This document shows, piece by piece, positions 1,536 through 62,115 of a DNA stretch of 64,000 nt (position 1 is the first letter of the stretch; the number at the start of each line of letters is the position of its first letter). Position numbers and translations under genes: made by a program. The DNA comes from Gari tellinella (taxonomy: Eukaryota; Mollusca; Bivalvia; Cardiida; Psammobiidae): positions 50,693,623 to 50,757,622 of the forward strand of contig OV277861.1 of the NCBI GenBank assembly GCA_922989275.2. The letters are read 5' to 3'. The notes below the pieces were generated by a model. That model was not told the DNA's origin. It searched no databases and saw only the letters and a program-made list of their open reading frames with translations.

Positions 1536-1782
1536 TTAACTCTTTCGCTGCCAAATTAATCGTGAGATTTTTATCCCACCACCGTTTCATTGTCGTCTGC
1601 TTCAATTTTGTTGTTTGTAAGATCGTTTCAAAGTAAGATTCAAAGTAGTATGACTTAAAGTATATATATACGAGTGTCAAACAGTTTGGATCCTGATCAG
1701 ACGCCGCGTTACGCGGCGTCTGATCAGGATCCAAACTGTTTGAAAACGCGCCTTTTGACGTCATTAAGAGTGAAAGGGTTAA
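1536..1782. mobile_element. Family E hairpin MITE
   Basis: TTAA-flanked (1536-1539 and 1779-1782). The core at 1678-1742 is a perfect 65-nt hairpin, 32 pairs and one centre base, with arms starting CAAACAGTTTGGATCCTG. The end sequences TTAACTCTTTC and GTGAAAGGGTTAA are inverted repeats. The subterminal block GTCGTCTGCTTC is typical of the family. Confidence 0.85.
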
Positions 1783-2150
1783 AATACAGCACAGTAATTT
1801 TAAGTATATGTTTTTCTTAACTTGTGGCAGAATTAAATTGATCTTGAGATATGGTCTTAGTATCTTAAAAAAAGTCTCTTAATCTGCGCCTGGGCACAAT
1901 GTGCGGTTTTTTTTGTACTGAGTGTATGTATCGCAAGGACCAGGCTTACAAAATTGTCAAAATATTTGCTTTGGTTGTTGATATAATTGATTTTCGTATG
2001 TTTTGGTCTTTGATGAATTTTTTTTACTTCGACTGTGTTGCCGGAAAGGAAGGGGCCCATATCAGTAATATCATGAATATGTGTATTAGTTTGGCACTGC
2101 TTTATTTTACATTCAGCTGAATATCAAAGCTCCAGATAATGGAGGTATTT
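1783..2150. other. Unassigned stretch
   Basis: AT-rich with T runs. Short frames occur on both strands but show no protein resemblance or splice context. I see no repeat ends here. Confidence 0.35.
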
Positions 2151-2153
2151 CAA

Positions 2154-2407
2154 ACACTTAACCCCGGTTACGCTTAAACTATTGTTTTCATTGCAAACAG
2201 TTTGGAGCCAGATCAGACGCCGGGTTTGCCTCTCAGATTAAAACTGGTAGTCTGAATTGTCAAAATGTTGTCATTTTCTATATTTCATTGCAATGCGCTG
2301 CGTTTGAACGAACTCGTTACGTGTTCTCCACTGTATTTCAGACCGGTAGCCAACACGCAATCGATGGCCGTCGACGGCCATCGATTTATTTACTGAACTC
2401 ATCACAG
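2154..2407. mobile_element. Family A2 hairpin element, half of the hairpin lost, with duplicated flank
   Basis: Left part ACCCCGGTTACGCTTAAAC and the left hairpin arm are present, but the right arm is missing: the sequence jumps from GACGCCGGGT to TGCCTCTCAGATTAAAAC. The segment and about 80 bp beyond its CTCCACTGTA end match 22132-22440, so the two sites share flanking DNA as well as the MITE. A 22-bp palindrome centred on CCGTCGACGG lies at about 2363-2384. Confidence 0.65.
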
Positions 2408-2417
2408 ATAATGTGGT

Positions 2418-2521
2418 TACAGTGCATCCTCCCTACAAGGCCCTCGGAACAACGACCTCCTCATTACAACGACCTCCTCATTACAACGACCATTTGGTGT
2501 TGTTGTAGAGCAGCACTGTAT
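2418..2521. mobile_element. Internally deleted family H element
   Basis: Ends TACAGTGCATCCTCCCTACA and TAGAGCAGCACTGTA are the two family H termini brought together. Two direct copies of ACAACGACCTCCTCATT sit between them. The hairpin core is absent. Confidence 0.55.
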
Positions 2522-2532
2522 TATGTCTGCTT

Positions 2533-2784
2533 TATACTGTGGAGAATCTGTTATTCTTTCCCGATAAACGCGTTTACGCTAAAACTATGTTTTCTTTTAC
2601 AAACAGTTTGGAGCCAGATCAGACGCCGGGTAACCCGGCGTCTGATCTGGCTCCAAACTGTTTGCCACCAATATAAACATGAGTTATCAGAATTGTCCAA
2701 AAATTGTTCTTTTCTACGTTTTAGGGCTTTGCGTTTGCGTACGTTTGCGTTTAAACGGGAAAGAATAACAGATTCTCCACTGTA
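2533..2784 (+). mobile_element. Family A hairpin MITE, essentially complete
   Basis: About 250 bp between TATACTGTGGAGAATCTG and GATTCTCCACTGTA. Core 2600-2664 is a perfect hairpin (32 pairs, one centre base, centre GGGTAACCC). Subterminal blocks AAACGCGTTTACGC on the left and GCGTTTGCGTACGTTTGCG on the right are family hallmarks. Stop-poor, so it produces spurious open frames on both strands. Confidence 0.88.
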
Positions 2785-2824
2785 CTCTATGTTGCTGTCA
2801 AAATCATAATGTCCAAAACATAAA

Positions 2825-2985
2825 CTATGAGTGAAAACAACAGACGGCAATTTTAAGCAAACGATACTGCAGCAGTGAAAGCGTTAGACATCATTTCTGT
2901 TTAGGGGAACAGCGGGAAGGATTGTTGGAAGAAAGGAATCGTTGTTCGGAAGTCCCTTGTAGGTAGGGAGAATACTGTACAGTAG
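2825..2985. mobile_element. Family H right-half relic
   Basis: Contains CAACAGACGGCAATTTTAAG, then GGGGAACAGCGGGAAGG, CGTTGTTCGGAAG and the end GGTAGGGAGAATACTGTA. The same order occurs in the fuller H copy ending at 34759. The hairpin half is missing. Confidence 0.55.
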
Positions 2986-3280
2986 TTGGCAATTGTCCTG
3001 TCGTTGTTTTGTTGTGTCTTATAAATGGGTCTACAATGTTTGTCAGTTTTCTTTTCTGCACACAAGCACTTATCAAAGACACTGTATTACTGGTCATGTC
3101 TTTTTAAAGATTTTTTAAATAGTCCAGATAAGGTATGCAGTGTTTTCCTTGAAAAAATTCATTTAGTAGGTAGATCCATATGTAAAGTTCTTATGACACT
3201 ACTAGAAAAATCTTTACGTACTTGACAGTTTCGATGACTAAGTACTGTCACCTTCTCAAAAATCCAACTGATTCCGTGGA

Positions 3281-3850
3281 TCATCGGCTATTTCGGTCAG
3301 CGCACTTGCTGACGAAAACCGGGTCCCAGGTGTGAGACAGCTTGTAGGCCCATTCGTCCCGGTTCATAGTCGACTTTTGTTTTCGAATCTGGATGGCCTC
3401 TTTCATTTGTCTAGCGCGAAGGTCCGACTCTCTATCCACTTGTGTGTGCCCTCCCAGTCAATGATGTGATTAGACTGCACAGAATGGTCCGTTATTCCAC
3501 TTTTGTTGTACTCGGTTAAGGAGGCTTTTCTTTCCGATCTTGTGTAATTTTTTACTTGATGAGTACAAACATCTTTCTTTTGATCGTCTAATCTATATTT
3601 GAAATTTCTGCTAGTTTCCCCGATATAAACTTTATCACATTGTTTGCATGGTATAGACTATAGAGTACACTACATCACTTTTGTTTTCAATCTTAACCTT
3701 GTCTTTGGGGTGAACTAAAATGAACCTAAGCGTTCTGTGGGGTTTCATTGCCGTAGCGATACAAGATTGGAAAGAAAAGTAAGGTGAATTCACACTAATT
3801 AGGAAATTGACTTTCATGCAATAGACCCAGTAATAATGGAACAGTTTCAT
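3281..3850 (-). pseudogene. Penelope-like element C-terminal relic with GIY-YIG endonuclease
   Basis: On the minus strand the translation runs from a linker containing KPHRTLRFILVHPKDKVKIE through VVYSI, IPCKQCDKVYIGETSRNF, then LSHTWDPVFVSKCADRNSR and a stop. VVY plus KVYIGET is the GIY-YIG nuclease signature, preceded by a CxxC pair. Penelope-like retroelements carry this nuclease after the reverse transcriptase and use it to nick the target. The domain is broken twice: a frame change at the VVYSI/IPC junction, where TATAGTC is partly repeated, and another after HKWIES before LRARQMKEAIQIRK. No reverse transcriptase is seen upstream, so this is a truncated, inactive copy. Confidence 0.8.
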
Positions 3851-4312
3851 TGATATAGTATGGTTTGATATGTAAATACACCAAGTTTATTTCCATCGAC
3901 AATTTAGTGCAGCGCATAAATAATGAGGTATTTGAATGGTCAAACGTTACAATTGTTATAAAACGTTCAAATTTGGTATGTAGTCGCATTAGGGGACGTC
4001 AAACTTAAAATAGTATGATTCTCAACAACATAGCCTCAAAATGAAGGTATTCTGTAATAACGAATGTCGTGAAAATCTAGGGCTTTGAAATGAGTTCCAC
4101 GAATTTGCTTGTTTCTTCAAAGTGTTATATTATTTTGTATATGTGCTGTCCCATTACTTTACAATTTACATGTACATGTATCTTTAATTTTTCTTAATAC
4201 AAATATCCCCATATGCGAGCATTGCTGTTTTCTAACAACTCTTGTTTATCTGTGTTAACATTTTATATTATATACATGTATATATATATGTATATAAAGA
4301 TGGTGACCTTTC
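3851..4312. other. Unassigned AT-rich stretch
   Basis: No convincing gene. A TATATATATG-rich simple tract occurs near 4266-4298. It may include further decayed Penelope-like sequence next to the endonuclease relic, but I cannot show that. Confidence 0.35.
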
Positions 4313-4537
4313 TTAACTCTTTGTATGCTGGGTAATTTTTTCGTCTGCAACAATTTTTCGTCTGCTATCGTTCTATAATATGATTTTTCAAATTTTCTTT
4401 TAAATTCAGTGTCAGAATAGCAAACTGTTTGGATCCTGATGAGACGCCGCGTTACGCGGCGTCTCATCTGGATCCAATCTGTTTGTAGAGGTAATCACTC
4501 TGGCAGGTATATCCGCCGCTAGCGTGCAAAGAGTTAA
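4313..4537. mobile_element. Family E/J hairpin MITE
   Basis: TTAA-flanked with inverted ends TTAACTCTTTGTATGC and GCGTGCAAAGAGTTAA. Core at 4421-4485 carries GATGAGACGCC paired with GGCGTCTCATC. Most E copies have GATCAG/CTGATC here, so both arms changed together. TTTTTCGTCTGC occurs on the left side. Confidence 0.8.
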
Positions 4538-4801
4538 AGACTCGAACCCTCTTGCGCGTGCAAGTCGAAAGTCAGTTCAAAACTTGGCTGAAAGAATCGT
4601 TCGCGCATAGTTTGGTAGTGACGAGAGTGGCCGATCTGTCCACGCAGAGTGCCAATATTTACCGACATAGGGTCGATTTCATTAGGGGCTTACTGCCATA
4701 AGCTTTAAATACTACAGTAAACAGTATAATCAATAATAGGGTTCCTGATAATGGTGAGCAAACTGAACAGTGTCTATATGACCTGTGCCCTGACAAAACC
4801 A

Positions 4802-4994
4802 GCATTATTGCATTGCAACATGGTACAGACCAAGCTCTGCTGTCTTACAGGCTCTGAATCTTAGTGTGGTCTTCATTGCAAGAAACCGTATATGATACAT
4901 AAAATGCTTTAGATACATGCGGGTATCAAATAGTGTACATGTAGATCACGGCCAGCCGGCCGACTTTTATCTACAATGTTTGCAATGCAATAAG
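4802..4994. mobile_element. Small TIR element with ATTGCATTGCAA ends
   Basis: Second copy of the element at 1173-1312: GCATTATTGCATTGCAAC on the left and TTTGCAATGCAATAAG on the right. The interior differs substantially in length. Non-coding. Confidence 0.6.
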
Positions 4995-5564
4995 TCATGC
5001 TACGGCTCGTTCTCCTTTATTCCCATGTTCTCACTGCAATAATACCTCTTCATTACGACCACAAAGTTGTGTAAATGTTAGGTGTTTGCTACAGGTGACT
5101 GTTTATAACAAGACGACCGTAGAACATAAAGTTCTTCTGTTTTGTCGTCACCTTGCTTTAAACTGTCACATGTCCTTAATTCGACCAATTAGCTTTCATT
5201 TTAGCGGTCGTAATAGAGAGGTTTTATTGTACTTATAAACCCAGGGTGAATGATGAGATCCTTTAAATATGCATCTCTGTACAAAATGACCTCACATGCA
5301 AGCCGTGTTATCATAATTTAGAGAATTGATCTCTGTTATCACATTACATAGAGTTTGGTAGAGACATAAGTTTGTCAGTATTTCAAATGGCCATCTTATT
5401 TTGAGCTCTGAACGCAGTTATACATGTATCTGACATTACGCTTATAAAACCTAGAGATTAGTCTGAGATCGTCCTCAGACTTTTGATATGTCAGGACCTA
5501 ACCGAACTAAAACGCATAACTAAGCAACTATCCAGAAATATCAAATAAACGTATACGCTTATAT
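4995..5564. other. Intergenic stretch with MITE debris
   Basis: Family C/H fragments are visible near 5036-5225 (ATACCTCTTCATTACGACCA, CACCTTGCTTTAAACTGTCA and GTAATAGAGAGGTTTTATTG), a decayed family C copy. The remainder is unassigned. Confidence 0.45.
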
Positions 5565-5778
5565 ACTACTCAACGTTTACGCAAACACAAAGCACTAAAC
5601 GTAGAAAAGTACAACTTTTGGACAATTCTGATATTTCATGTTTATCTTGGTGGCAAACAGTTTGGAGCCTGATCAGACGTTACCCGGCGTCTGATCTGGC
5701 TCCAAACTGTTTGCACTGCAAATAATAGTTTTAGCGTAAACGCGTTTATTGGGAAAGAATAACAGATTCTCCACTGTA
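5565..5778 (-). mobile_element. Family A hairpin MITE with a shortened stem
   Basis: Reverse orientation. The right end CAGATTCTCCACTGTA is intact and the left end is eroded. The hairpin at about 5654-5713 lost five bases from one arm (GATCAGACGTTACCC), so the pairing has a gap. It carries the T/T version of the single stem mismatch seen in many A copies. Confidence 0.75.
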
Positions 5779-5830
5779 CCAATGCATTGACCCTGTCACT
5801 TCTCATCACATAACCTCCAACATTTTGTTC

Positions 5831-6455
5831 GATTTCTTCCAAATGTGGAGATGTTTTGCCAAAGGTTTACTTTACAGATTATGATAACTTTGACAATTGT
5901 TTATGTCATGTAGGCGAAATCTGAAGAAATGCTAAAAATGTGAAAATTATGAGAATTCACCACAATCTTCAACTCCATTGGATTCTACGTTGAAATCTTC
6001 TTAGAGATGTTATTCGTTAGTTAAATAATATTTTACATTTCAATGTTTAATTGTACCTATTATAACATCTCTTACAACAATAAAAATCTAGAATTCAATG
6101 GATTTGAAAATGTTGGTGAAATCTCAGAAATTTCACATTTAGATACAGTAAAACCTCTCTATAACAGCCACTAAAACGAGGGCTTTTTGATTATATAAAT
6201 GACAGGTGACAGCTTAAAGCAATGTGACAGTAAAACAGAAAGCTCCTAAAGGAGCTTTCTGTTTCACTGTCACCTTGCTTTAAGCAGTCACCGGTCTTAG
6301 ACACCCAATAATCAAAAAAACTTAGTGGCTGTTATAGAGAGGTTCTACTGCAAGTCCTTCGAGTTTCGCCTACAGGACCTGAGCAAGCGTCAAATGATCA
6401 AAATATGTAAAGTAAACCTTTGGCCAAAACATCTCCCAATTTGGAAGAAATCAAA
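5831..6455. repeat. Long foldback element with nested hairpins
   Basis: Outer arms: GATTTCTTCCAAAT at 5831 and its inverse ending at about 6451, continuing through CCAAAGGTTTACTTTAC and CATGTAGGCGAAA. Inside lies a second inverted repeat, 5936-6143, whose arms begin AATGTGAAAATTATGAG and AAATGTGAAATTTCTGAG. A family C element (6145-6352) sits between the inner foldback and the right outer arm. No coding capacity is apparent. Confidence 0.65.
6145..6352. mobile_element. Family C hairpin MITE
   Basis: About 207 bp. Ends TACAGTAAAACCTCTCTA and TAGAGAGGTTCTACTGCA are inverted repeats. The core is a stem of about 96 bp with arms GACAGGTGACAGCTTAAAG and centre AGCTCCTAAAGGAGCT. The GACCACTAAAA subterminal block is mutated to CAGCCACTAAAA. 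Confidence 0.85.
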
Positions 6456-6771
6456 CCCTTTGTGCTTAGCAAACTTTTATATATGGACAAGGCAATATAT
6501 CGCTTACTATATCAAAGTACTCGTATGTTCAATCTAACACAGAACGTGTGATATGGCGACGCCTGTCTGAGCCCGAGAGAAATATGACTTTTCAGGACAA
6601 ATATACCTCCATATCTCCTTACAAAACGAACAATATATATAATACCGAAATTAGAATCTTCATCCGTGGCAAGAAAACTCGTTTCATTGATTGATGTTTT
6701 CTTTGTCATTATTTCATATTGAACATCATCATTACTTGTGTCTGAGAAGTCCCGAAAACATTTAACTGAAT

Positions 6772-7026
6772 TTTAATTATTTCCACCATAGAATCGCCTT
6801 TTAGCGCATTGACTGTATACCTCCACTGAAGAAAATTCATGAAGTTTAGTTTATAGTCATGAACATGAACCTTAGTATGTATTTTAAAGTTTAGCAGATT
6901 GTCGCTTAAGGTAAGCTGAAGGTAAACCATAATGCGCCTTAAAGTGCATTCTGCTATACTTTCAGTCTGCTTTAAGTTACCATCTGTCTTCAAAAACTAG
7001 AAACGGACTATGAGGTAAAGGGTTAA
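6772..7026. mobile_element. Family B hairpin MITE
   Basis: Right end GAGGTAAAGGGTTAA is intact and the left end is eroded. The core at about 6905-6975 is imperfect (CATAATGCGCCTTAAAGTGC centre). The CACTGAAGAAAATTC block is a family hallmark. Confidence 0.75.
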
Positions 7027-7061
7027 TGGTATTTTTATTATCACATTGATGTATACACCTT

Positions 7062-7554: not shown

Positions 7555-7559
7555 TGTGG

Positions 7560-14257: not shown

Positions 14258-14485
14258 TTAACCCATTTGTGCCCACGATCATATATATGGGACATAAGCA
14301 AACAGTGTAGACTCTGATCAGACGCCGCATTATGCGGCGTCTTATCAGAGTCTACACTGTTTGCTGATAGGAATTTCAATATAAAACAAAATGAAAATGA
14401 AAATTTTGACCATGCATCCCTTTGATAAAAAGGGACTAATCCAATATATAAACATGGAAGAATCCACTGGGTATAAATGGGTTAA
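14258..14485. mobile_element. Family J hairpin MITE
   Basis: TTAA-flanked with inverted ends TTAACCCATTTGTGCCC and GGGTATAAATGGGTTAA. Core 14299-14363 has arms CAAACAGTGTAGACTCTGAT. The inner motif GACGCCGCAT pairs with ATGCGGCGTC. Relative to family E, the outer stem differs on both arms together. Confidence 0.85.
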
Positions 14486-19079: not shown

Positions 19080-19281
19080 CAGGGTTCCAGATAAGGGGAA
19101 GTAAACTGAACAAATCCAGCATTTTCTCACTTATTTCAGCACCAAATCCTATAGTGTTACTTCTCATTAGAATCGTCTCTTCGAGACGATTCTGATAAGT
19201 AGTGACACCATAGGGTTTAAAGTAGAAATAAAGATTTTAACTTTTTAAATACATGTACTCCCTTTATCTGGAACCCTGGGT
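19080..19281. mobile_element. Family G hairpin MITE
   Basis: Ends CAGGGTTCCAGATAAGGG and CCTTTATCTGGAACCCTG are inverted. The stem includes CCTATAGTGTTACTTCTCAT, is centred on CGTCTCTTCGAGACG, and is mirrored by GTAGTGACACCATAGG. About 200 bp, non-coding. Confidence 0.8.
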
Positions 19282-19687: not shown

Positions 19688-20322
19688 GTTTTGTCATAAA
19701 ATTATTGCCAGTATTTAGGCAAGTTTAATCATGAGAGATGTAGGCCAATTTTATTCAACTGGCAGGGCGGAGCTAACCTTTGGCAAAGATGAACTAATTT
19801 ACTTTTGATTTTAGGGTTGATAGGTATAGTTCCGTATTAAATCGTTATTGTCCGATGCTTTCAAGTTGAAGAAACACAATTTATGTGTGCACCAATATCC
19901 AGTGCAATTGGTATATACAGTGCTCCCTCTGTAAAACAACACCCAATGGAAGACAAAGATTGCATGTGTTGTTCGTAGGGAATTTTTATAGGAAGGGAAA
20001 TTAAGACTTGGTTAACATTTGCAAACAGCTTTAATCCAGATCAGACGCCGCGTAACGCGGCGTCTGGTCTGGATTCAAGCTGTTTGTCATTCTTCATTAT
20101 CTTCCTTCTGCCAAAATGTCCATTGATATGTAGTATTGAGAAAAAACCGGCAGACGACAACGGTAAATTCCGATAATAAAAAAGCGTGCTGTCGCCCCCT
20201 AAGTTGAAATGCAATGGTCCGCATCGAAACTCCGCCCTGACAGGTCAATAAAATCGGTATATATATTGGTTTGTCATAATATTATTGCCAGTTTTAGGCA
20301 AGTTTAATCATGAGAGGTAGAA
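19688..20322. repeat. Element with inverted repeats inside direct repeats, holding a nested H MITE
   Basis: Inverted pair: ATTTTATTCAACTGGCAGGG (19752) and CCCTGACAGGTCAATAAAAT (ends 20254). Outside it is a direct repeat of about 50 bp, TATTGCCAGTTTTAGGCAAG with TTTAATCATGAGAG, at about 19690-19745 and 20268-20322. A family H element lies inside. The arrangement (direct, inverted, inverted, direct) suggests an insertion with a long target duplication or a local duplication. Confidence 0.55.
19919..20175. mobile_element. Family H hairpin MITE
   Basis: Left end ACAGTGCTCCCTCTGTAAAA. Core 20022-20086 has arms CAAACAGCTTTAATCCAGAT, centre CGCGTAACGCG and a near-perfect mirror. The right part GGCAGACGACAACGG is typical and the right end is lost. 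Confidence 0.75.
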
Positions 20323-32122: not shown

Positions 32123-32318
32123 TACAGTCGAACTTCGATATCTCGACATCGCTTAACTCGAACTATCCGATAGTTTAATACATGAACTGCATAGTTTCAT
32201 GCACGGTTAGGTCGAACATACCCATATTTCAAAGTTAAAACGTGGCTCAGCCACGTTTTAACTTTAAAATACGGGTATTTTCGACTTAAGCGAGTCGAGA
32301 TATCGAAGTTCGACTGTA
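32123..32318. mobile_element. Family I hairpin MITE, complete
   Basis: TACAGTCGAACTTCGATATC and GATATCGAAGTTCGACTGTA are exact inverse ends with TA borders. The centre AAAACGTGGCTCAGCCACGT is a second perfect hairpin at about 32237-32262. Long arms pair over most of the 196 bp. Confidence 0.85.
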
Positions 32319-33645: not shown

Positions 33646-33870
33646 GGCCCGTTCCATAAAACTTCGTACGACAAAAACGGTCGTAAGTCAGATTATGAAA
33701 TTTATTTCTCCATATCCTGTCTTGTGACATCTCTTTGGAATCGTCTTGAAAAGACGATTCCAAAGAGATGTCTCAAGACAGGATTAGATACAGAAATCAC
33801 AAATTAAATGTATTTTAAAGTTTTGATTTACGACCGTTTTTACAGTACGAAGTTTAATGAAACGGGCCCC
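33646..33870. mobile_element. Family F hairpin MITE
   Basis: GGCCCGTTCCATAAAACTTC and GAAGTTTAATGAAACGGGCC ends are inverted. Further inside CGTACGACAAAAACGGTCG pairs with CGACCGTTTTTACAGTACG. The core stem TCCTGTCTTGTGACATCTC is centred on CGTCTTGAAAAGACG. About 225 bp. Confidence 0.85.
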
Positions 33871-34389: not shown

Positions 34390-34759
34390 GGTATCACAGC
34401 GTTCCATCTCTACAACCACATCCAATGGGAGACAAAAACTGTGTGCGTTGTTCGGAGGAAGTCGTTATAGGGAGGGAAATTGGCTTACAATTGCAAACAG
34501 TTTGAATCCAGATCAGACGCCGCGTAACGCGGCGTCTGATCAGGATTCAAGCTGTCTGTAACTCATTATTAAGTTTTTCGGTCAAAATGTCCATTATGTA
34601 ACTTTGAGAAAAACAGCAGACGACAAATTTAAGCAAACTGTAAATATTACAGCCATAAAAAGCGTTAGACATAATTGTCTTATTTGGGGAACAGCAGCAA
34701 GGGGCGTTGTAAGGAGGGAGTCGTTGTTGAGAGGGTCGTTGTAGGGAGGGAACACTGTA
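34390..34759. mobile_element. Family H hairpin MITE next to the glycosyltransferase acceptor
   Basis: CAGCGTTCCATCTCTACAAC to GGTAGGGAGGG-like end GGAACACTGTA. Core at about 34494-34559: CAAACAGTTTGAATCCAGAT, centre CGCGTAACGCG, mirror GATTCAAGCTGTCTG. It ends 27 bp before exon 2 of the glycosyltransferase gene, just outside its pyrimidine tract. Confidence 0.75.
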
Positions 34760-35868: not shown

Positions 35869-36109
35869 GGGCCCGTTTCATAAAACTTCGTACGACAAAA
35901 ACGATCGTAAGTCTAAACTTTAAAATAATTTTAATTTCTGATTTCTCCATCTAATCCTGTCTTGTGACATCTTTTTGGAATCGTCTTGAAAAGACGATTC
36001 CAAAAAGATGTCACAAAACAGGATTAGATGGAGAAATAAATAATTATTGAGGCTTTTATAATCTGACTTAGGACCATTGTCGTACGAAGTTTTATGAAAC
36101 GTGTCCCAG
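35869..36109. mobile_element. Family F hairpin MITE
   Basis: GGGCCCGTTTCATAAAACTT and AAGTTTTATGAAACGTGTCC ends. Long stem 35948-36036, TCCATCTAATCCTGTCTTGT, centred on CGTCTTGAAAAGACG and almost perfect. Lies just downstream of the glycosyltransferase polyadenylation signal. Confidence 0.87.
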
Positions 36110-37411: not shown

Positions 37412-37662
37412 TTAACCCTTTACCTCATAGCCTATTTCTAGTTTTGAAGACAGGTGACCACTTAAAGCAGGTTGAAAGTAAAGCAGAATGTGCCTTAAGG
37501 CACATTCTGCTTTACTTTCAGCCTGCTTTAAGCTAAAATCTGCTAGGCTAAATAAAATAGTTGTAATAATAATTGTTCCTGAGGGTATAAACTAGAACAT
37601 TTTTCTTCAGAGTAGGAATAAATTAAATACGCTAAAAGTCGCTTCTATGGGGGAAAGGGTTA
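37412..37662. mobile_element. Family B hairpin MITE with compensated centre
   Basis: TTAACCCTTTACCTCATAG to ATGGGGGAAAGGGTTA. Core 37462-37531. The centre is GTGCCTTAAGGCAC rather than GCGCCTTAAGGCGC, so both sides of one base pair changed and pairing is kept. Confidence 0.87.
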
Positions 37663-37679
37663 TGCATAGTGTCTACTAA

Positions 37680-37770
37680 GTGGTCATTGGCAAACAGTGT
37701 AGACTCTTATGAGACGCCGCGTTACGCCGCGTCTCATCAGAGTCTACACTGTTTGCTAGATCATGTGAAA
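37680..37770. mobile_element. Family J hairpin core
   Basis: Hairpin at about 37690-37754: arms CAAACAGTGTAGACTCTTAT and mirror, inner GAGACGCCGCG/CGCGTCTC with one mismatch. Termini of the element are not clear. Confidence 0.65.
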
Positions 37771-41290: not shown

Positions 41291-41526
41291 GGGGCCCGTT
41301 TCATAAAACTTTGTTCGACAAAAACGATCGTAAGTCAAAACTTTAAAATACATTTAATTTCAGATTTCTCTATGCAATCCTGTCTTGTGACATCTCTTTG
41401 GAATCGTCTTTTCAAGACGATTCCACAGAGATGTCACAAAACAGGGATTAGATGAAGAAATAAATAATAATTGAGACTTTTATAATCTGACTTACGACAA
41501 CATTAATCGTACAAAGTTTTATGCCC
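41291..41526. mobile_element. Family F hairpin MITE
   Basis: GGGGCCCGTTTCATAAAACT, stem centred on CGTCTTTTCAAGACG, right end ACAAAGTTTTATG then decayed. Central stem pairs almost completely. Confidence 0.82.
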
Positions 41527-43646: not shown

Positions 43647-43855
43647 TACAGTAAAACCTCTCTATAACGACCACTAAAATAAATGCTAATTAGATGTATA
43701 AAAGACAGGTGACAGCTTAAAGCAAGGTGACAGTGAAACAGAAAGCTCCTAAAGGAGCTTTCTGTTTAACTGTCACCTTGCTTTAAGCAGTCACCTGTCA
43801 AAAACAAAAAATAATTAACATAATTTAGTGGCCGTTATAGACAGGTTCTACTGTA
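43647..43855. mobile_element. Family C hairpin MITE, complete
   Basis: TACAGTAAAACCTCTCTATA to GACAGGTTCTACTGTA. Stem 43704-43799, 96 bp, GACAGGTGACAGCTTAAAGC arms, centre AGCTCCTAAAGGAGCT. Few mismatches. Confidence 0.9.
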
Positions 43856-51147: not shown

Positions 51148-51390
51148 GCCTGTATAGCTCAGTGGTAGAGCATCCGCTTGCAGTGCGGGAGGTTGCGGGT
51201 TCAATCCCCGGCTGGTCAAACCAAAGACTTGAAAATTGGTAGTAATGGCTTCCCTCATTGGCGCTGATTTCGGATTAGCATTACGACTGGTTCGTCTATT
51301 TCAGGATAAAGTGACCAGCAGGGTACAGTTGGTGCCCCTAAAAAGTGCCCCTTCTCACAATCATCAGAATTGATGGCGTAAAAGTATTAG
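51148..51390 (+). mobile_element. tRNA-derived SINE (tRNA-Cys-like head)
   Basis: Head 51148-51218: A box TAGCTCAGTGGTAGAGCA, anticodon loop TTGCAGT giving GCA, B box GGTTCAATCCC. The 5' GCCTGTA and 3' CTGGTCA do not pair as an acceptor stem, and a body (ACTTGAAAATTGGTAGTAAT and beyond) follows with no RNA polymerase III terminator. It is therefore a SINE rather than a tRNA gene. Lies in tRNase Z intron 1, antisense. Confidence 0.7.
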
Positions 51391-54600: not shown

Positions 54601-54700
54601 TGAGCTGAGCATATATAAATGATATCTAGCCGTCGGTAACGACGATGCAAACAGTGTACAAAGGTGACATCGTAGTCCAAACACCGAAACAATTTAAATA

Positions 54701-54912
54701 TTAACCCTTAGCCTGCCACTCACGACTAGCTCCATATGCAAACAGCTTGGATCCGGATGAGACGCCGAGTAACTCGGCGTCTCATCCGGATCCAAGCTGT
54801 TTGACACTCGGACAACATTTTCAGCAGTTTTGAGCAACTTTGAAGCACTTTGAAACTTGAAGCAGACGAGAAATATAGCAGACGACAATTTATTTGGCGG
54901 GCTAAGGGTTAA
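54701..54912. mobile_element. Family E hairpin MITE, intact, with a fully covaried stem
   Basis: TTAACCCTTAGCCTGCC and GGCGGGCTAAGGGTTAA ends are inverse. Core 54739-54803, perfect 32 pairs plus one centre base: CAGCTTGGATCCGGATGAGA with exact mirror. Compared with 1678-1742, at least five base pairs changed on both arms. GCAGACGACAATTTATT block. Confidence 0.92.
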
Positions 54913-54934
54913 GCATTTTGACCACATAAACAAA

Positions 54935-55480: not shown

Positions 55481-56632
55481 ACTAGAATCTAAACAATTCT
55501 GAAATGAAGCATTTTCTAGCATTTCAAAGTATATCAAGGGCAGATAGCTCTTTCCACAATGATACGATTTAAACAATAATTACACTCCTTCGAGAACATA
55601 TAGCTACATGTATATAGAAATGTGTACAAATATAATCAAAATCTATTGATTACTGTACTTGCAAGAGTGTAAACACTGTTAGACATGACATTTTCAACTC
55701 ATCAAGGGCAGATAACTCTCGATCAATTTGTCCGACTTCAACAATTTTCAATCTCATGCAAGACAAAGATGGGATAATGAGTGTGGCTTATAAAGTGTAA
55801 ACACTGTCAGATTTGGCATTTTCAACACATCCCATTTCAGCCAAAATTAAACTCATTTGAGAACGTATGGCTATATACAATCTGAGCTAGTTTTAAAAAG
55901 ATTGGATAAATATTGTGATATCTGGAGTATAAAACGCTGTCAGCTATGGCATTTTCAGCAACTCAAGGGCAGAAAAATCTTGTCATATTCGTCCGATTTC
56001 AACCATAATCAAACTGATATGAACTCTTTTAGTCGTATACAATCAGAGCAAGTTTGAGAAGGATGGGATAAAAATGATGGACTCTAGAGTGTAAACACTG
56101 TTAAATATGACATTTTCAGCAATTCAAGAGTATATCACTCTTGACCTATTCGTCCGATTTCAACCATAGTTTTACTAATCTGAACTCTTATATAGTCATA
56201 TACAATCTGAACACGTTTGAGATAGATTGGGTAAAGAGTGTGGCCTCTAGAGTGTAAACATCGTTAAATATGGCATTTTCAGCCATTCAAGGGTAGATAA
56301 CTGTTGATCTATTTGTCCAATTTCAACCATAATCCAACTTATCAAAGCTCTTATAGTAATATACAATCTGAGCAAGTTTGAGAAAGATTGGATAAAGAGT
56401 GTGGCCTCTTGAATGTAAACATTGTCAGATTTTGCATTTTCAACACATCAAGGGTAGATAACTCATGACTTAATGATCCCATATATATATATACAATCTG
56501 AGCTAGATTCAGAAAGATAGGATAAAAATTGTGGCCTCTAGAGTGTAATCACTAAAAGTGTTGGCGACGGACGACGGGCGCCGGACATTCAAGGATTGCA
56601 AAAGCTCACCCTTACCAAGCTCAGGTGAGCTA
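55481..56632 (+). mobile_element. Tandem-core Helitron-like repeat with 3' hairpin, copy 3 (different family)
   Basis: GTGTAAACACTG-type markers at about 55667, 55795, 55927, 56089, 56251, 56413 and 56541 give mainly 162-bp spacing (three intervals), others 128-132. Units contain TTTCAACCATAATCAAACT and GGGCAGATAACTCT. The 3' end has GACGGACGACGGGCGCCGG, then AGCTCACC...GGTGAGCT (56603-56632), a hairpin. The 5' end is not visible. No coding capacity. Confidence 0.6.
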
Positions 56633-56685
56633 AAAATTCATGAGCGGATCCAGAGATTCTTCTAAGAGGGTCATACAGGGGAGGT

Positions 56686-56863
56686 TTAACTCTTTCCTCC
56701 CTGAAACTTCAAATGGTCAATCCCGGTTTCCATTTTAGTCTAGTCCATTTCTGACTTTTAAGGGTTGTTTTTTGTCAATGGTTTGCATAGGACAAGTGCA
56801 CTTATCACATGTATACTGTTTGAAAAGGACGCATATATGCGGGACTAGGGTTCAAAGGGTTAA
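56686..56863 (+). mobile_element. Family D MITE lacking its whole hairpin
   Basis: TTAACTCTTTCCTCCCTGAA to CTAGGGTTCAAAGGGTTAA, 178 bp. Both flanks are well preserved compared with 7304-7554, but GTCAATG joins directly to GTTTGCATAGGAC: the about 70-bp palindrome is absent and the rest intact. Confidence 0.85.
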
Positions 56864-56865
56864 TA

Positions 56866-57070
56866 TACAGAGGAGAAAGAAGACATTATTCTTTGCAAAT
56901 AAACATTTTTAAAAATAAACATTACTGTAAGTGTCAATAGTTAGGGGCCATATCAGACGCCGGACAACCCGGCGTCTGATCAGGCTCCAGGCTATTTTCC
57001 ACTCATAATAACCAGAACCGTCAACGTGACAATTTCAAGAAATTGACATGCTCGACAATCTAGAGCAGTA
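56866..57070. mobile_element. Decayed family A variant
   Basis: ACAGAGGAGAAAGAAGACATT left. Core about 56935-57000: AGGGGCCATATCAGACGCC, inner GGCGTCTGATCAGGCTCC. Confidence 0.6.
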
Positions 57071-57289
57071 CGTGTCTTTAAAAGCGGTAAAGGAAATCGT
57101 CTTTTCCTCTGTATAATATAAATTCGATCTGTGTATTCTTATCTTCTTTTCCCCCTTTTTTAAGGATATTCAGGTGCATTTGGGTTTCACCCTCCTGAGT
57201 ATGAATGGTCGGTCCCATGCCAGTTTCTAATGCGACTGGAGGTGTTATCAATTCCTTAATTTCCCTGCATACTATCACACAATGTTACC

Positions 57290-57537
57290 ATGTAGACACG
57301 CAATTTGAAAAATAACGTAATTTGAAAAAGTATTTCAAATTGCGTTTAGAATCGGTACTCCGTAACGAAAATTGGAAAATTGAAAAACTTTACACCGACA
57401 AGAAATGTTACATGATCGTAATGTTATTTGAAAAATCATGTTGCTTTACGGTGCCCCGATTCTTAACGCAATTTGAAATGCACGTATTTCTTTTTCAAAT
57501 ACACTTGTATTGTTATTTTTCAAATTACGTGTCTACA
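57290..57537. mobile_element. TIR element with GTAGACACG-AATTTG ends
   Basis: ATGTAGACACGCAATTTGAA and TTTTTCAAATTACGTGTCTA with CAT are inverse. CAATTTGAAA/TTTCAAATTG blocks recur within each arm. Arms pair over about 70 bp. 248 bp. Confidence 0.7.
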
Positions 57538-57613
57538 TTGCCGCACTGTACATCTGCCCAAAGCAGGAAAAAGAATGAATCATCGTCTCCATATAACTGA
57601 AATTGGTCGGACG

Positions 57614-57808
57614 TTAACCCGTTCACTTTCAGTTACGCTTTAAAGCGTATTTGCAAACAGTATGGGTCCTGATCAGACGCCGCGTAACGCGGCGTCTGAT
57701 CAGGACCCAAACTGTTTGACACTCTAATCGATATTTATTAAGTCACACAACCTTAAATCTAACAATGAAACGTGTCTTGCAGACAACAATAATGAAGCAG
57801 ACGACAAG
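57614..57808. mobile_element. Family E hairpin MITE
   Basis: TTAACCCGTTCACTTTC left end. Core 57654-57718: GGGTCCTGATC paired with GATCAGGACCC, a two-sided A-T to G-C change relative to GGATCC/GGATCC. One mismatch (GTATGG). Right end lost after GCAGACGACAAG. Confidence 0.82.
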
Positions 57809-58520
57809 TCACGCATTCACTAACAAGTGGTAGTTAGTAGTATTTTATTTGTTTCCTCCATACCTGGAGAAGTATAATACATACACAGATATCAAATTAT
57901 TAATACAAACATTATTTACACATGTTACCATAAAAATGTCATTCAAACATAATTAAAGTTTGAAATCTCTGGTTTGAAGCGTATTGCATTTAATGGGCAT
58001 GTACTGTCTTCAATCGTGTACTTTGTAATTATCATTACAAGCTAAAGTCAATTCAGTTATTTCGTATAATGGCTGAAGGTGTTTTTCAATCATTTCATGC
58101 AATGACTGATTTCACTCAAATGTTTTATTTTCCGGAGAATTTATGCATGGTCATATATTTTCATCAAGTTTGATTTATTGCCATCCAAAATTGCAGACAA
58201 TACAGTGTAAATAAGAATGAAATATGCCATATATCCTAGCATGTCTTAGCACTGGTCTGAGTTCAGCCATAATCGAACATATTCAAGATCTGATTACTCG
58301 TGAAGTTTATGTTCAAGTTATCTTAAAATCCATTCAATGCTGAAATTAAAAGACATGCACAGTTCAATCACTATAAATGCGTCCAAAGCTAAACTTTGGA
58401 TACATAATCACTCATTTAAATATTAGTCGTTAACTCACTAGAAAAAACCCCGGTCGTGCACAAACACCGTACCGTTGTTCAATTTAGACGTTATTTCCCG
58501 CTATTAAAGGCATGTATACA
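57809..58520. other. Probable 3' flank of the orphan gene
   Basis: AT-rich, no gene. Downstream of the minus-strand frame that ends at 58769. No secure polyadenylation signal chosen. Confidence 0.35.
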
Positions 58521-58712
58521 CCTAACCCATTACCCAATATACATGCCTTTTTACACCTCTAATTTATTCCTTCAGTATACAAAATATGTTCTAGACCCAT
58601 GTAGAATCATGTAATGGCTTAAAGCAGGCTGAAAGTAAAGCAGAATGCGCCTTACTTTCTACCTGTTTTAAGTGGCCACCTGTCTACGAAACTTTTAAGC
58701 GGGGTTAATTGG
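58521..58712. mobile_element. Family B MITE with half of the stem deleted
   Basis: TAACCCATTACCCAATATAC to AGCGGGGTTAA. Left arm CTTAAAGCAGGCTGAAAG runs to AATGCGCCTT, then jumps to ACTTTCTACCTG. Confidence 0.75.
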
Positions 58713-58768
58713 TTCAAATCTAAGAGTAACCAGTGTTATCCATATACCTTTTTTCTATTTAATGGAGT

Positions 58769-60070
58769 TTAAATGACTTTTGGTTCAAATTCCCTTTCCC
58801 ATACAACAGACCACGAATTGAAATCATTTACGGTAGTGTTTGTTCGAACTTGCGCTTTCAGCCTTGGTGACAGAGTGTTAAATCCGTCCCTCTGCCTCAG
58901 GTTGTCCAGCATATCCATGACACTTTGGTACCTGTAAGTCATAACCAACTTTCTGTTATCTGGGGAATGCCGGGTCGTTTTATTAGCTCCGTCGACGCAA
59001 CTGACTGATGCCGAAGTTGTAGATTCAGGCGAGGTTTGCTTGGCTGGAGCTGCTTTATCGTTCGTTGATGTTTCGTCTGTTAAAACGTTATTGGGTTCAG
59101 AATTTTGTTTCAGGCTATCGTTTTCGCCGCTTACAAGTTCATAGTTTCTTCTTACTTCTTTCCTTACTTCAATGTTGGCAATAGGTGTTTTGCTTCTTCT
59201 CAGAGACGTGTGACATTCTGGGTAGCTCACTGTCATTTTGTCAAACACGAGGTCCTCATACCCCTTCAACATCGCATACTGGGCCTCCGCGGATAACATC
59301 GAGGCGAATCTTGGTTGCTCTGGCATCGTCTTAATAACGAACATTTCTTCATCAAATTCATGTAAGGTTGCTTTGTCAACAGTTACTGTTGAACTTTTGC
59401 GACGAAACGCATTCTTTGCCCGTATCATACCCGTAAGCTTATTACCTAAGCTCTTCCATGACATTTTGTTCTGGCGGAATGTATTTTCAAAGTCCTTTGC
59501 AAAGCTATTCAGGGGGATTTTGCTACTGTCAAAGTTTCCACACGTATTTGCCCGTCTCATTACCCTTCGCCCCGTCTTGTTATTTCCGTTGTCCGTTTTT
59601 TCTGAGTGTTTGTATAATGAAGAAACGCTTTTACTCAATCGTGGAACTTCAACGCATTCTGTTGCTTTTATCCCAACTTTGGTGCGCAACGAAGACACTG
59701 GCTGCTTGATAATTGATTCGCTTGTATAAGACCGTTTCAAGATACCCTTCGGCGACCCATTACCATGCTTGTCTTGTACGTACTTGATACAATTTGCCGA
59801 CCATACGAGTGTACCATCCATACTTTTACTTCTCAAATGTGTGTCTAACAAAGACACGTTTGATGAAGATCTCGATAGAACACAGTTCCGTTGAGATTTC
59901 AGGTTTTCACTTAATGGCGGCATTTTAACTTTCTCACTATTCTCAGACACTACACTCAACGTTGACGGTGCTAATGAAAGTCTTTTCAAATGACACGGCG
60001 TCCCCTGTTTTAAATGGGCACCTTTTATGTCCACTGCACGCACCTGTCCGAACGTAGCTGACCCAATCAT
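58769..60070 (-). CDS. Orphan 433-residue basic, Ser-rich protein
   Basis: Starts at ATG 60070 (MIGSATFGQVRAVDIKG) and stops at 58769 (EREFEPKVI). Upstream, TTGCCAG-GGATG resembles an acceptor, so a 5' UTR exon may exist. No domain, signal peptide or membrane segment is recognised. Residues 1-300 are basic and rich in Ser, with RRKSS and RRANT sites of the type basophilic kinases use. About 310-370 is low complexity (KQTSPESTTSASVS). The C-terminal part, MDMLDNLRQRDGFNTLSPRL, looks more ordered. The long stop-free frame and lack of repeat similarity argue for a real gene, perhaps lineage-restricted. Function not assigned. Confidence 0.7.
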   Translation of the reverse strand: MIGSATFGQVRAVDIKGAHLKQGTPCHLKRLSLAPSTLSVVSENSEKVKMPPLSENLKSQRNCVLSRSSSNVSLLDTHLRSKSMDGTLVWSANCIKYVQDKHGNGSPKGILKRSYTSESIIKQPVSSLRTKVGIKATECVEVPRLSKSVSSLYKHSEKTDNGNNKTGRRVMRRANTCGNFDSSKIPLNSFAKDFENTFRQNKMSWKSLGNKLTGMIRAKNAFRRKSSTVTVDKATLHEFDEEMFVIKTMPEQPRFASMLSAEAQYAMLKGYEDLVFDKMTVSYPECHTSLRRSKTPIANIEVRKEVRRNYELVSGENDSLKQNSEPNNVLTDETSTNDKAAPAKQTSPESTTSASVSCVDGANKTTRHSPDNRKLVMTYRYQSVMDMLDNLRQRDGFNTLSPRLKAQVRTNTTVNDFNSWSVVWEREFEPKVI

Positions 60071-60142
60071 CCCTGGCAATGTCTATAGTACGTTCTTTTA
60101 CCTTGTCACAATGTGTTTATTGTCCTGTTAATCTTGACTATA

Positions 60143-60331
60143 AATTATAAATCATCTTTATTATGACCACTAAATTGAGTTAATTAAAGGTGTTTAAGTA
60201 AGGTGATTACTTAAAGCAATGTGTCAGTAAAACAGAAAGCTCCCTGTCACATTGCTTTAAGCTGTCACCTGTCTTTTATAAATCAATTCTCCCTCTTTTT
60301 AGTAGTCGTAATAGAGAGGTTTTACTGTATT
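60143..60331. mobile_element. Family C MITE with shortened stem
   Basis: Left TTTATTATGACCACTAAATTG, right AATAGAGAGGTTTTACTGTA. Stem arm TTACTTAAAGCAATGTGTCAG, AGCTCC, then CTGTCACATTGCTTTAAG: the inner right arm is lost. Confidence 0.75.
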
Positions 60332-60617
60332 TATGTGTTAATCCCGTTTCACACAATGCGGAATATCGCTATATAATCTTGTATAATTTTGGTTTCTTTA
60401 GCGCCCAGTCTTGTAATATTGTACAATATTAATTCTCTGCTCTTATGAAAGCTAGACGATATTATATCGCGTTTCGAAAGAAAAACCTCCATAAGTCGTT
60501 AACTGGCGATCGCCACGGCACAGATACACATGCAGAGAAAACTATCATCCGTTTAATGTCAACCTTTGATTGATCGTGCTGCCTCATTGATCGGTTCTTC
60601 AATAAAGCACAGTGAAG

Positions 60618-60824
60618 AACAGTAAAATATATATCACGACCCCTAAAACGATAGGTAATTGGTTGTATAAAAGACAGATGACAGCTTAAAGCAAGGTGAC
60701 AATAAAGCAGAAAGCTCCTGTAGGAGCTTTCTGTTTTATTGTCACCTTGCTTAAAACAGCCACCTGCCCAATACATTTAAGAATTAAGATAATTTTATGG
60801 TCGTAAAAGAGAAGGTTTACTGTA
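60618..60824. mobile_element. Family C hairpin MITE
   Basis: AACAGTAAAATATATATCAC to GAGAAGGTTTACTGTA. Stem about 60675-60770, centre AGCTCCTGTAGGAGCT (G/T centre pair differs from other copies). Confidence 0.85.
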
Positions 60825-60866
60825 TTCGCTTCTACGGCCACTCATACAAAGACGTATTGATGATGT

Positions 60867-61268
60867 TAAACCTATTCCTCTCTAAAACTTCAAACAGACA
60901 GTTCCAGTTTAGTTTTGTCCATTTTTTCCTATTTAGGATAGTTTTTGTCAATGTATACTAACACGACAAAGAAACTGTACGTTTGGCTCGAGGGACTTTT
61001 GTTTACAATTGGTTTGAGAGACTTTTGTTATACTTATACAGTTATAAGTGCAAACCATAGACAAATTTGGTATTTAAATGCGCAAAAATGTATTGGCTAC
61101 ACGAAAGCGTATGTTTGAATGTGATTTGATAATGTTGTGCATGAATGACGATGGTGTGAAAAGTAAAATTTGCAAATGTTACTCTTTGCGTAGGACAAGT
61201 GTACTATTTATAGGTACACTGTTAGCAAAGGATGCATATATATGCGGGACTAAGGTTCAAAATGTTAG
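60867..61268. mobile_element. Family D element with a 200-bp non-hairpin insert
   Basis: TTAAACCTATTCCTCTCTAAA and GGATAGTTTTTGTCAATG on the left. GCGTAGGACAAGTGTACTATT and GGGACTAAGGTTCAAAATG on the right. The palindrome is replaced by sequence containing TGTACGTTTGGCTCGAGG. Confidence 0.55.
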
Positions 61269-61366
61269 GACAGGATGAACTAAATCAAGAAGGGTGGAAA
61301 TAAAGTATGAATCGCCGTTAGGAGTTTTCTATTTTACTTTCATCGTGCACCAAACAGCGCATGCCC

Positions 61367-61618
61367 TTAACCTTTGCGCCAAAAGTACTAATGTATATAA
61401 GCATTTAATTTATTCACCCATTGAAGAATATAGTTCCAATTTATACCGTCATAAATATGTATCATAAGAAATAGTTTCTAGGAGATTATAGCTTAAAGCA
61501 GGCTGAACGTATAGCACAATGCGCCTTAAGGCGCATTCTACTATACTTTCAACCTGCTTTAAGACATAGTGGTCATTAGTCTTCAACCCTAGAAACAGGT
61601 TTTGGAGTAAAGGATTAA
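61367..61618. mobile_element. Family B hairpin MITE
   Basis: TTAACCTTTGCGCCAAAAG to TTTGGAGTAAAGGATTAA. Core 61492-61562, centre GCGCCTTAAGGCGC, with a few arm mismatches (GTATAGCACAATG versus CATTCTACTATAC). Confidence 0.8.
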
Positions 61619-61666
61619 ACGAAAGGCTTTGTTTAAGAATTTCTCCGCCAAATTTAACCATCCGTT

Positions 61667-61858
61667 TTAACCCTTTCACACAGACAAAACAACTTCTGCT
61701 CAACATTGTCGTCTGCAGTTTGATGTAAATTTATCTTTTGGCACTTTTGATCGTTGGAATATTGCAACGAGTGCCAAACATCCTGATCAGACGCCGTGTT
61801 ACGATCAAAACTGCTTGCAAAGTCACATGTTGGTGCCATCGGCAGTGAAAGAGTGAAG
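61667..61858. mobile_element. Family E MITE with stem deleted
   Basis: TTTTAACCCTTTCACACAG to GGCAGTGAAAGAGTGAAG. Stem reduced to GCCAAACATCCTGATCAGAC, CGTGTTACG then ATCAAAACTGCTTG. Confidence 0.65.
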
Positions 61859-61865
61859 TTATTGC

Positions 61866-62115
61866 TACAGTGGAGAATCTGTTATTCTTTCCCAATAAAC
61901 GCGTTTACGCTAAAACTATTATTTGCAGTGCAAACAGTTTGGAGCCAGATCAGACGCCGGGTAACCCGGCGTCTGATCTGGCTCCAAACTGTTTGCCACC
62001 AAGATAAACAAGAATTATCAGAATTGTCCAAAAGTTGTTCTTTTCTACGTTTTAGTGCTTTGCGTTTGCGTACGTTTGCGTTTAAACGGGAAAGAATAAC
62101 AGATTCTCCACTGTA
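61866..62115 (+). mobile_element. Family A hairpin MITE, complete reference copy
   Basis: 250 bp, TACAGTGGAGAATCTG to GATTCTCCACTGTA, TA borders. Core 61931-61995 is perfect: 32 pairs, one unpaired centre base in GGGTAACCC. Confidence 0.92.

What the first reader, a model, noticed from the sequence alone, without database searches (positions are those of the whole stretch)
1678..61995. One 65-nt hairpin core is carried by element families with unrelated ends
Families A (61931-61995), E/J (1678-1742, 54739-54803) and H (20022-20086) have different termini and different flanks (TA for A and H, TTAA for E/J). All enclose the same design: CAAACAG outer arm, GATCAGACGCCG inner arm, centre GTNAC, 32 pairs plus one base. 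Family D keeps the CAAACAG and GATCAG blocks but has a TTAA dyad. Ordinary MITE families do not share an interior while differing at the ends. Either the hairpin moves between families as a module, or a cellular factor selects it. This is the strongest candidate for an undescribed system here.
Basis: partly seen in the sequence, partly recalled or inferred. Interest (0 to 1): 0.88.

Follow-up and report, generated by a model that had tools for sequence, protein, structure and literature searches.

The report
Hairpin shared by chimeric mini-transposons
A 65-letter DNA hairpin, present in well over a hundred thousand copies in this genome, sits in small transposons whose ends belong to different classes, probably because elements nested in one another and were copied again while the hairpin stayed unusually well preserved.

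Summary
The named hairpins are real (30-32 of 32 pairs). The core is common: 82 inner-block hits in 264 kb and 139,314 exact copies of its 31-nt centre genome-wide, reversed control 0.
"Unrelated families" is not the whole truth. H (TA ends) carries a fossil TTAA-type end 107 nt from the core: 38 of 47 positions match family M, 0 of 1000 shuffles. H is therefore read as a TTAA element nested in a TA element. For A the flank evidence is weak. A second hairpin group (P2 in TTAA ends, P4 in pogo-like TA ends) also shares its flank across end classes, 0 of 2000.
Best reading: chimeric MITEs made by nesting and re-amplification, with a palindrome that helps its carriers amplify. That function is inferred.

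The parts
1536..1782 (+). TTAA element of family EJ (TTAA..TTAA): 142-nt long arm, core 1678-1742, 40-nt short arm
   Evidence: core pairs 32/32
1678..1742 (.). P1 hairpin core, EJ
54701..54912 (-). TTAA element of family K: long arm 109 nt, core 54739-54803, short arm 38 nt (ends read from the sequence; the script cut the long arm too far out, 221 nt)
54739..54803 (.). P1 hairpin core, K (GATGAG variant, both arms changed)
61866..62115 (-). TA-ended element of family A (TACAGTGGAGAATC..) around core 61931-61995
61931..61995 (.). P1 hairpin core, A
20022..20086 (.). P1 hairpin core of an H variant (30/32 pairs); short-arm TA end starts at 19916 (read from the sequence), far end not resolved
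34395..34759 (-). complete TA-ended H element (365 nt) with core 34494-34558; contains the fossil TTAA-type end
63354..63419 (.).
37412..37663 (+). TTAA-ended element with P2 hairpin (core 37465-37528), arms 53 and 135 nt
6144..6352 (.). TA-ended pogo-like element with P4 hairpin (core 6217-6280), arms 73 and 72 nt; its right end reads TGCA, not TGTA
43647..43855 (.). second pogo-like P4 element (core 43720-43783), arms 73 and 72 nt

Best explanation
The P1 hairpin belongs to an old kind of short non-autonomous TTAA transposon of about 214 nt: long arm ~109, hairpin 65, short arm ~40. Such elements inserted into (or were flanked by) TA-type elements, lost part of their own ends, and the composite was amplified again with the new ends, giving H and perhaps A. 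Something similar happened between the TTAA elements with hairpin P2 and the pogo-like TA elements with the related hairpin P4. SHOWN: the fossil TTAA-type end in H; the flank shared by P2 and P4; piggyBac elements of this genome whose ends match some of these MITEs but that lack the core; slower evolution of the core, most on internal branches; mostly compensatory changes between families. INFERRED: the direction of the end changes (best supported for H); that piggyBac transposases move the TTAA forms and Tc1/mariner-pogo-type transposases the TA forms; and that the palindrome is kept because copies with an intact palindrome amplify better. It would act as a DNA structure (cruciform or hairpin), helping the ends to meet or helping copying during repair after excision, whichever transposase is used.
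For: Long arms EJ-H: score 41, null max 37, 0/500. H fossil end (48 nt) vs M: 38/47 identical, score 59 vs 11.9+-4.8, 0/1000; 0/1000 also vs EJ, EJ2, K and M2, 5/1000 vs K2; it lies 107 nt from the core, against 108-113 nt in the ten non-EJ TTAA rows measured correctly. EJ: the last 109 nt of its 142-nt arm begin with a stretch similar to the ends of M, K and M2 (0/1000 each), EJ2 (1/1000) and K2 (16/1000). P2 and P4 elements share 20/24 nt next to the core, score 32, null max 29, 0/2000. PF13843: 86 matches, several with open frames; PB1 ends TTAA-CCCTTTCGGCGCC, 22/22 (TTAA included) identical to MITE L026; no P1 or P2 palindrome between the ends of PB1 (three copies), PB2 (one) or PB3 (one). 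A, 28 flank-selected copies: core/arm change ratio 0.63-0.65 on terminal and 0.16-0.20 on internal branches, p<0.001 on both trees. P2, 54 copies: 0.53-0.63 and 0.30-0.36. Nine P1 rows: 12 of 32 pairs changed on both sides (shuffled mean 5.1, 0/500), 1 G.U in 288 cells. Inner palindrome in 28 of 60 de novo TIR elements vs 4 of 60 size-matched stretches.
Against: For A the flank test is weak: 9/1000 vs EJ2, 6/1000 vs M2, 77/1000 vs H, 100/1000 vs K, no signal vs EJ, M, K2 (seven tests), and none with the 22-copy A consensus. The part of the long arm between the outer 48 nt and the core is not similar in most H comparisons: H-M 135/1000, H-K 559, H-M2 253, H-K2 461, H-EJ 38, H-EJ2 2; H-K, H-M and H-K2 reached only 32, 18 and 36 of 500. 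The 48-nt windows also hold the GTCGTCTGC motifs, which add to the scores. No clean empty H was found (two short H-like pieces without a core are ambiguous), and no clean empty A among 33. No partner of A or H was found in the three DDE_1 stretches read. The P2 terminal/internal contrast is not significant on the all-site tree (p=0.073). Within A copies core changes are mostly one-sided (82 vs 4 two-sided, 2.2 expected). M, M2 and K2 rest on 2, 1 and 1 copies. 18 of 56 P1 palindromes had no recognised ends.
Confidence: 0.62

Rival explanations
1. The hairpin itself is a mobile module that inserts into different MITEs.
For: Same 65-nt unit in TTAA and TA elements; for A little more than the core is demonstrably shared; related arms in P1-P4 (P1-P2 0/3000, P3-P4 1/3000).
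Against: In the TTAA families and H the core comes with the same asymmetric flank (..GAGTGW-core-CA..) and, in H, a fossil TTAA-type end. I saw no direct repeats at the hairpin edges in the listed copies (by eye, no formal test).
Confidence: 0.12
2. A host RNA pathway (small RNAs, double-stranded-RNA binding or editing) selects the hairpin.
For: Size like a pre-miRNA stem (recalled); invariant blocks AAACAG and AGACGCCG among nine rows; very stable fold (DNA parameters).
Against: Only 1 G.U among 288 cells, and 9 of 15 two-sided pair types are transversions, so Watson-Crick DNA palindromy rather than RNA pairing seems kept; inserted A copies change mostly on one side. In P2 copies, though, 93 of 1726 cells are G.U and 1487 Watson-Crick. 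No expression data.
Confidence: 0.15
3. The core is homogenised by gene conversion between the very many genomic copies or by arm-to-arm template switching, without selection.
For: Core changes are rarer also on terminal branches (0.53-0.65). In P2, same-branch complementary changes exceed the random-partner means (8 vs 2.2 terminal; 4 vs 0.25 internal, all four at one pair), though they only equal the random maxima of 8 and 4.
Against: Conversion should also act on standing copies, yet A copies keep one-sided changes and family-specific cores persist.
Confidence: 0.2
4. Each family made its palindrome independently and they resemble each other by chance.
For: Palindromes also occur with unrelated sequence (P5-P8).
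Against: Core identity between A, EJ and H consensuses is 86-92%.
Confidence: 0.01

Closest known systems
MITEs of piggyBac elements (TTAA)
   Same: TTAA target; ends of MITE L026 match a piggyBac of this genome and P2 ends resemble another
   Different: Central near-perfect palindrome (arms of about 32 bp) that the piggyBac elements read here lack
MER6, a mariner-type MITE that carries a SINE V domain (PMC6887750, abstract seen)
   Same: A conserved module spread by DNA-transposon ends that are not its original carrier
   Different: There the module is a SINE domain; here it is a palindrome found in both TTAA and TA elements, in two hairpin groups
Palindromic CRD-binding sites of piggyBac and piggyBat (PMC11707139, passages seen)
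   Same: Palindromes close to piggyBac-type ends
   Different: Those are short (19 bp in piggyBac, about 14 bp in piggyBat) and bound by the transposase; ours is 65 nt, central, absent from the piggyBac elements read, and also present in TA elements
Coding palindromes of Nematomorpha mitochondria (PMC6649704, start of abstract seen in a search listing)
   Same: Numerous long perfect inverted repeats in one genome
   Different: In mitochondrial genes, not transposons

Membership tests
piggyBac-type MITE (EJ, K, M, EJ2, P2) | TTAA at both ends | tested here: met
   18 P1 rows were collected by TTAA-type ends with up to 1 mismatch, so this is partly by selection; exact TTAA in 14 of 18 on the left and 17 of 18 on the right. 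34 P2 short arms with TTAACCCATT-type ends, likewise selected
piggyBac-type MITE (EJ, K, M, EJ2, P2) | Ends match an autonomous piggyBac of the same genome | tested here: inconclusive
   Met for one EJ copy, L026 (22/22 to PB1); P2 ends resemble PB2 CCCATTACC (by eye); K, M, EJ2 not matched
piggyBac-type MITE (EJ, K, M, EJ2, P2) | Excision and reinsertion by piggyBac transposase | not testable with these tools
   needs an assay
Tc1/mariner-pogo-type MITE (A, H, P4) | TA target and inverted ends starting CAGT | tested here: met
   (similarity between copies stops at TA, by eye); 3 of 8 P4 copies have an imperfect or cut end; the class name is from recall
Tc1/mariner-pogo-type MITE (A, H, P4) | Autonomous partner with the same ends | tested here: inconclusive
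   none in the three stretches read of 150 DDE_1 matches scored
Self-mobile hairpin (REP/REPIN-like) | Hairpin inserted alone at unrelated sites | tested here: not met
   flanks shared beyond the hairpin for EJ/H and P2/P4; not decided for A
Known RNA family | Rfam match at the gathering score | tested here: not met
   one match in the window, a tRNA at 51153-51214

The most novel reading that the evidence does not exclude
A palindromic DNA module acts as a transposase-independent amplification aid: whichever ends enclose it (piggyBac-type TTAA, A, H or pogo-like TA), its carriers multiply, so it passes from one transposon class to another and keeps its palindrome by compensatory change. Well over a hundred thousand copies would then be the footprint of a cis-acting element that works with a host replication or repair factor.
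Probability: 0.2. Interest if true: 0.8.

Novelty: new variant of a known kind. Interest (0 to 1): 0.5.

Why it matters
MITEs are usually explained as deletion products of one autonomous element. Here an interior module outlives its ends: each of two hairpin groups (P1, P2/P4) is found in both TTAA-ended and TA-ended elements with shared flank, and in A and P2 the core evolves more slowly than its flanks. If the palindrome promotes amplification regardless of transposase, that addresses the old question of why some MITEs reach enormous numbers, and it can be tested directly in a transposition assay. It also warns repeat annotation that interior similarity does not define a MITE family.

Tried and rejected
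Rejected: hairpin as an exogenous or viral sequence (viral contigs 0; genome contigs 0; records near this genome may be left out there). Hairpin inherited from the piggyBac elements read: no P1 or P2 palindrome between the ends of PB1, PB2 or PB3; one 12-nt half-block match with 2 substitutions falls inside PB3. A constant 65-nt size for all palindromes: not so, median arms run from 32 (P1) to 44 (P4) nt. Core divergence in A from core-selected copies was biased and was replaced by flank-selected copies. D (P3) flank against P1 families: not significant (EJ2 111, EJ 319, H 53, M 1664, K 1109 of 2000). A DNA search of the own genome with 61900-62020 found nothing, as very common words are skipped. 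Text search for core letters in PMC: 16 papers hold at least one of six 11-12-nt strings, none on transposons of molluscs by title; none was opened. Searches for palindromic or chimeric MITEs showed no paper that describes this, judged by the titles and abstract starts listed (lists capped at 20 of 98, 6 of 6, 15 of 36, 9 of 10, 12 of 28, 5 of 5); only open-licence PMC is held. My notebook calls L001-L020 'random' and says each MITE family has a central hairpin: the stretches were taken at round positions, and 32 of 60 de novo TIR elements showed no inner palindrome.
Full report
WHAT IS THERE. The four named hairpins exist at the stated places; three pair 32 of 32 and 20022-20086 pairs 30 of 32. 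They are a small part of what the genome holds. The 31-nt centre of P1 with exact arms occurs 139,314 times in the 1.6-Gb genome, the reversed control never.

ENDS. Of 56 P1 palindromes, fuzzy end patterns found TTAACCCTT-type ends in 17, A ends in 18, H ends in 2, TTAACCCATTA ends in 1 and none in 18. Of 78 P2/P4, TTAACCC-type patterns fit 48 (two overlapping patterns, 30 and 18), pogo-like ends 8, H-type 1 (at 4 mismatches per end) and none 21.

HOW THE P1 FAMILIES RELATE. Clustering of flanks put arms of E/J (TTAA) and H (TA) in one cluster. With the longer arm to the left, the TTAA families and H read ...GTCGTCTGC...GAGTGW-core-CA..., with variants. Of 18 TTAA rows, ten non-EJ rows have long arms of 108-113 nt; 54739 was cut too far out (221; 109 when read from the sequence); five EJ rows have 142-144 nt (171 in one); two more EJ rows (L001:8147, L033) were matched at an inner end, 109 and 106 nt from the core. 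Short arms are 38-53 nt, mostly 39-42. E/J thus seems to hold a second, older TTAA-type end inside its present one: the last 109 nt of its consensus arm start TTTTACCCCTACACCG and match the ends of M, K and M2 (0 of 1000 shuffles each), EJ2 (1) and K2 (16).

H LOOKS NESTED. Between its TA end and the core, H has 91 nt of TA-element sequence, then CTAACCTTTTTACGGCTGCAATATCGTCTGC..., 107 nt from the core. These first 48 nt match the TTAA end of family M at 38 of 47 positions (score 59; shuffles 11.9+-4.8; 0 of 1000); against EJ, EJ2, K and M2 also 0 of 1000, against K2 5 of 1000. One listed H copy has an intact TTAA there (L030). The rest of the arm up to the core is less similar: H-EJ2 2, H-EJ 38, H-M 135, H-M2 253, H-K2 461 and H-K 559 of 1000; with whole arms EJ-H reaches 0 of 500, but H-M 18, H-K 32 and H-K2 36 of 500. 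By eye the short arm keeps only CAAATGTAAGCCAATTT before TA-element sequence resumes.

A IS LESS CLEAR. A consensus of 22 copies shows no flank similarity to the others. The older A copies (10 of 42, those with GAGTG or a close form before the core) give 9 of 1000 against EJ2, 6 against M2, 77 against H, 100 against K and no signal against EJ, M and K2 over 44 nt (seven tests). The A core is 92% identical to EJ and 86% to H. I take A as a heavily truncated chimera with modest confidence; capture of little more than the core is possible.

A SECOND CASE. P2 hairpins sit in TTAA elements with TTAACCCATTACCCCATA-type ends; the related P4 hairpins sit in TA elements with TACAGTAAAACCTCTCTA ends (eight pogo-ended copies, three with an imperfect or cut end; seven of them were labelled P2 by the lax pattern). 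The 24 nt next to the core agree at 20 positions (score 32, null mean 13.7, maximum 29, 0 of 2000). The direction is not shown. P1-P4 arms are themselves related: P1-P2 0, P3-P4 1, P3-P4b 2 and P3-P2 3 of 3000; but P1-P4 105 of 3000 and P1-P4b above the print limit of 150 (arms chosen by hand, 36 pairs tested). P5 and P6 form another group (0 of 3000).

AUTONOMOUS PARTNERS. PF13843 gives 86 matches in this genome (a lower bound), several with open frames. Three kinds were read: PB1 (L063, L065, L066; about 3.1 kb; TTAA-CCCTTTCGGCGCC, 13/13), PB2 (L069:1481-5660, TIR 10 of 12) and PB3 (L070:1177-5552, 12 of 12). MITE L026 shares 22 of 22 end bases with PB1. None of these has a P1 or P2 palindrome between its ends; PB3 has two AT-rich palindromes of another sequence and one 12-nt half-block match with 2 substitutions. 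For A and H no partner was found in three stretches chosen from 150 DDE_1 matches; one of these (L073) has pogo-like ends resembling those of P7 elements.

CONSTRAINT. To avoid selecting on the core, A copies were picked by flanks alone, with profiles built from core-selected copies: 46 pairings of left and right flank, 13 dropped as cross-hits between the two ends, 33 kept; 10 left and 8 right hits were unpaired. Core divergence is 5.2%, against 14.1% and 12.0% in the arms and 7.9% in the left TIR; core below the arm mean in 32 of 33. On a tree of the 28 with cores of at least 57 nt, changes per site in core relative to arm are 0.65 on terminal and 0.20 on internal branches (Fisher p=0.00045); with a tree from all sites 0.63 and 0.16 (p=0.00047). 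In P2, 54 of 86 flank pairings have a core of 58-70 nt (22 shorter, 10 longer) and give 0.63 and 0.30 (p=0.0004), or 0.53 and 0.36 with all sites (p=0.073). So the core is protected most in lineages that kept amplifying, and to a lesser degree on terminal branches. Young and old A consensuses differ at 17 of 124 arm sites, 6 of 63 TIR sites and 1 of 65 core sites.

PALINDROMY. Among nine P1 rows (seven typed family rows, M2 resting on one copy, and two window copies) 96.9% of cells pair, 12 of 32 pairs have two-sided changes (shuffled mean 5.1, 0 of 500 as high), further pair types are 16 (18 of 500 as high), and 1 of 288 cells is G.U. Nine of 15 two-sided pair types are transversions, which cannot pass through G.U. 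Positions free in sequence (8, 9, 14, 17, 21, 30) still covary, which a plain protein-binding site would not demand. Inside A copies the changes are 82 one-sided and 4 two-sided (3 complementary; 2.2 expected), so standing copies are not seen to be kept palindromic. In P2 the same-branch complementary changes (8 terminal, 4 internal, the latter all at one CpG pair) exceed the random-partner means (2.2, 0.25) but only equal the random maxima: inconclusive for arm-to-arm correction.

ENRICHMENT. Of 60 de novo TIR elements (33 TTAA, 27 TA; 0 in one shuffle each) 28 have an inner palindrome, against 4 of 60 size-matched stretches; from their end letters some of the 32 without look like false picks inside the palindromes themselves.

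MECHANISM. Nesting, truncation and re-amplification make chimeric MITEs; given the density of elements this is expected. What needs explaining is that successful chimeras keep the hairpin and that it evolves slowly in amplifying lineages with different ends. I infer that an intact palindrome helps amplification as a DNA structure, for instance by bringing ends together or during repair synthesis after excision. This step is inference, not shown.

LITERATURE. The full-text searches listed no description, by title and abstract start, of this hairpin or of palindromic cores passing between TTAA and TA MITEs. Nearest are MER6 (PMC6887750, abstract) and the palindromic CRD sites of piggyBat and piggyBac (PMC11707139, passages). 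PMC10294476 (passages) reports that MITEs occupy a considerable part of bivalve genomes; the search found no 'palindrom' or 'hairpin' in its main text.

Noticed in passing
L063, L064, L065, L066 (G000 C1, C4, C5, C17): piggyBac copies with equal scores and long open frames (616-633 aa), three of them with matching TIRs: probably a recently active family.
   Followed up: partly
window 1536-1782 and other EJ copies: E/J elements seem to carry two TTAA-type left ends, one inside the other, as if a new end had been added outside an old one.
   Followed up: partly
window 19149-19213, 33717-33781, 35957-36021, 41380-41444: P5/P6: a second group of near-perfect hairpins; 4 of 13 P5/6 palindromes showed GGGCCCGTTTCATAAAAC-type ends.
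   Followed up: partly
window 32216-32280; L003:1189; L073: P7 hairpins in elements with pogo-like ends (CAGTTGAACTTCGA; 3 of 4); L073 holds an open-frame DDE_1 element with similar ends (CAGTAGAACTTCGATG).
   Followed up: partly
window 14299-14363 and 37691-37755: Hairpins with a P3-type outer stem and a P1-type tip: look like mosaics between P1 and P3.
   Followed up: no
L004:3243-3306 and L017:6923-6987: Hairpins with a P1-like outer stem or a GATCAGAG block but a new tip or stem, still paired.
   Followed up: no
L017:5848-5911; L003:6181-6244: Palindromes that look like two elements of one family lying head to head at TA or TTAA.
   Followed up: no
window 20022 and L027: H variant whose long-arm side continues into a different repeat (GACCTGTCAGGGCGGAGTTTC...): perhaps another change of end.
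   Followed up: no
window 51153-51214: tRNA match (Rfam RF00005, 39 bits).
   Followed up: no
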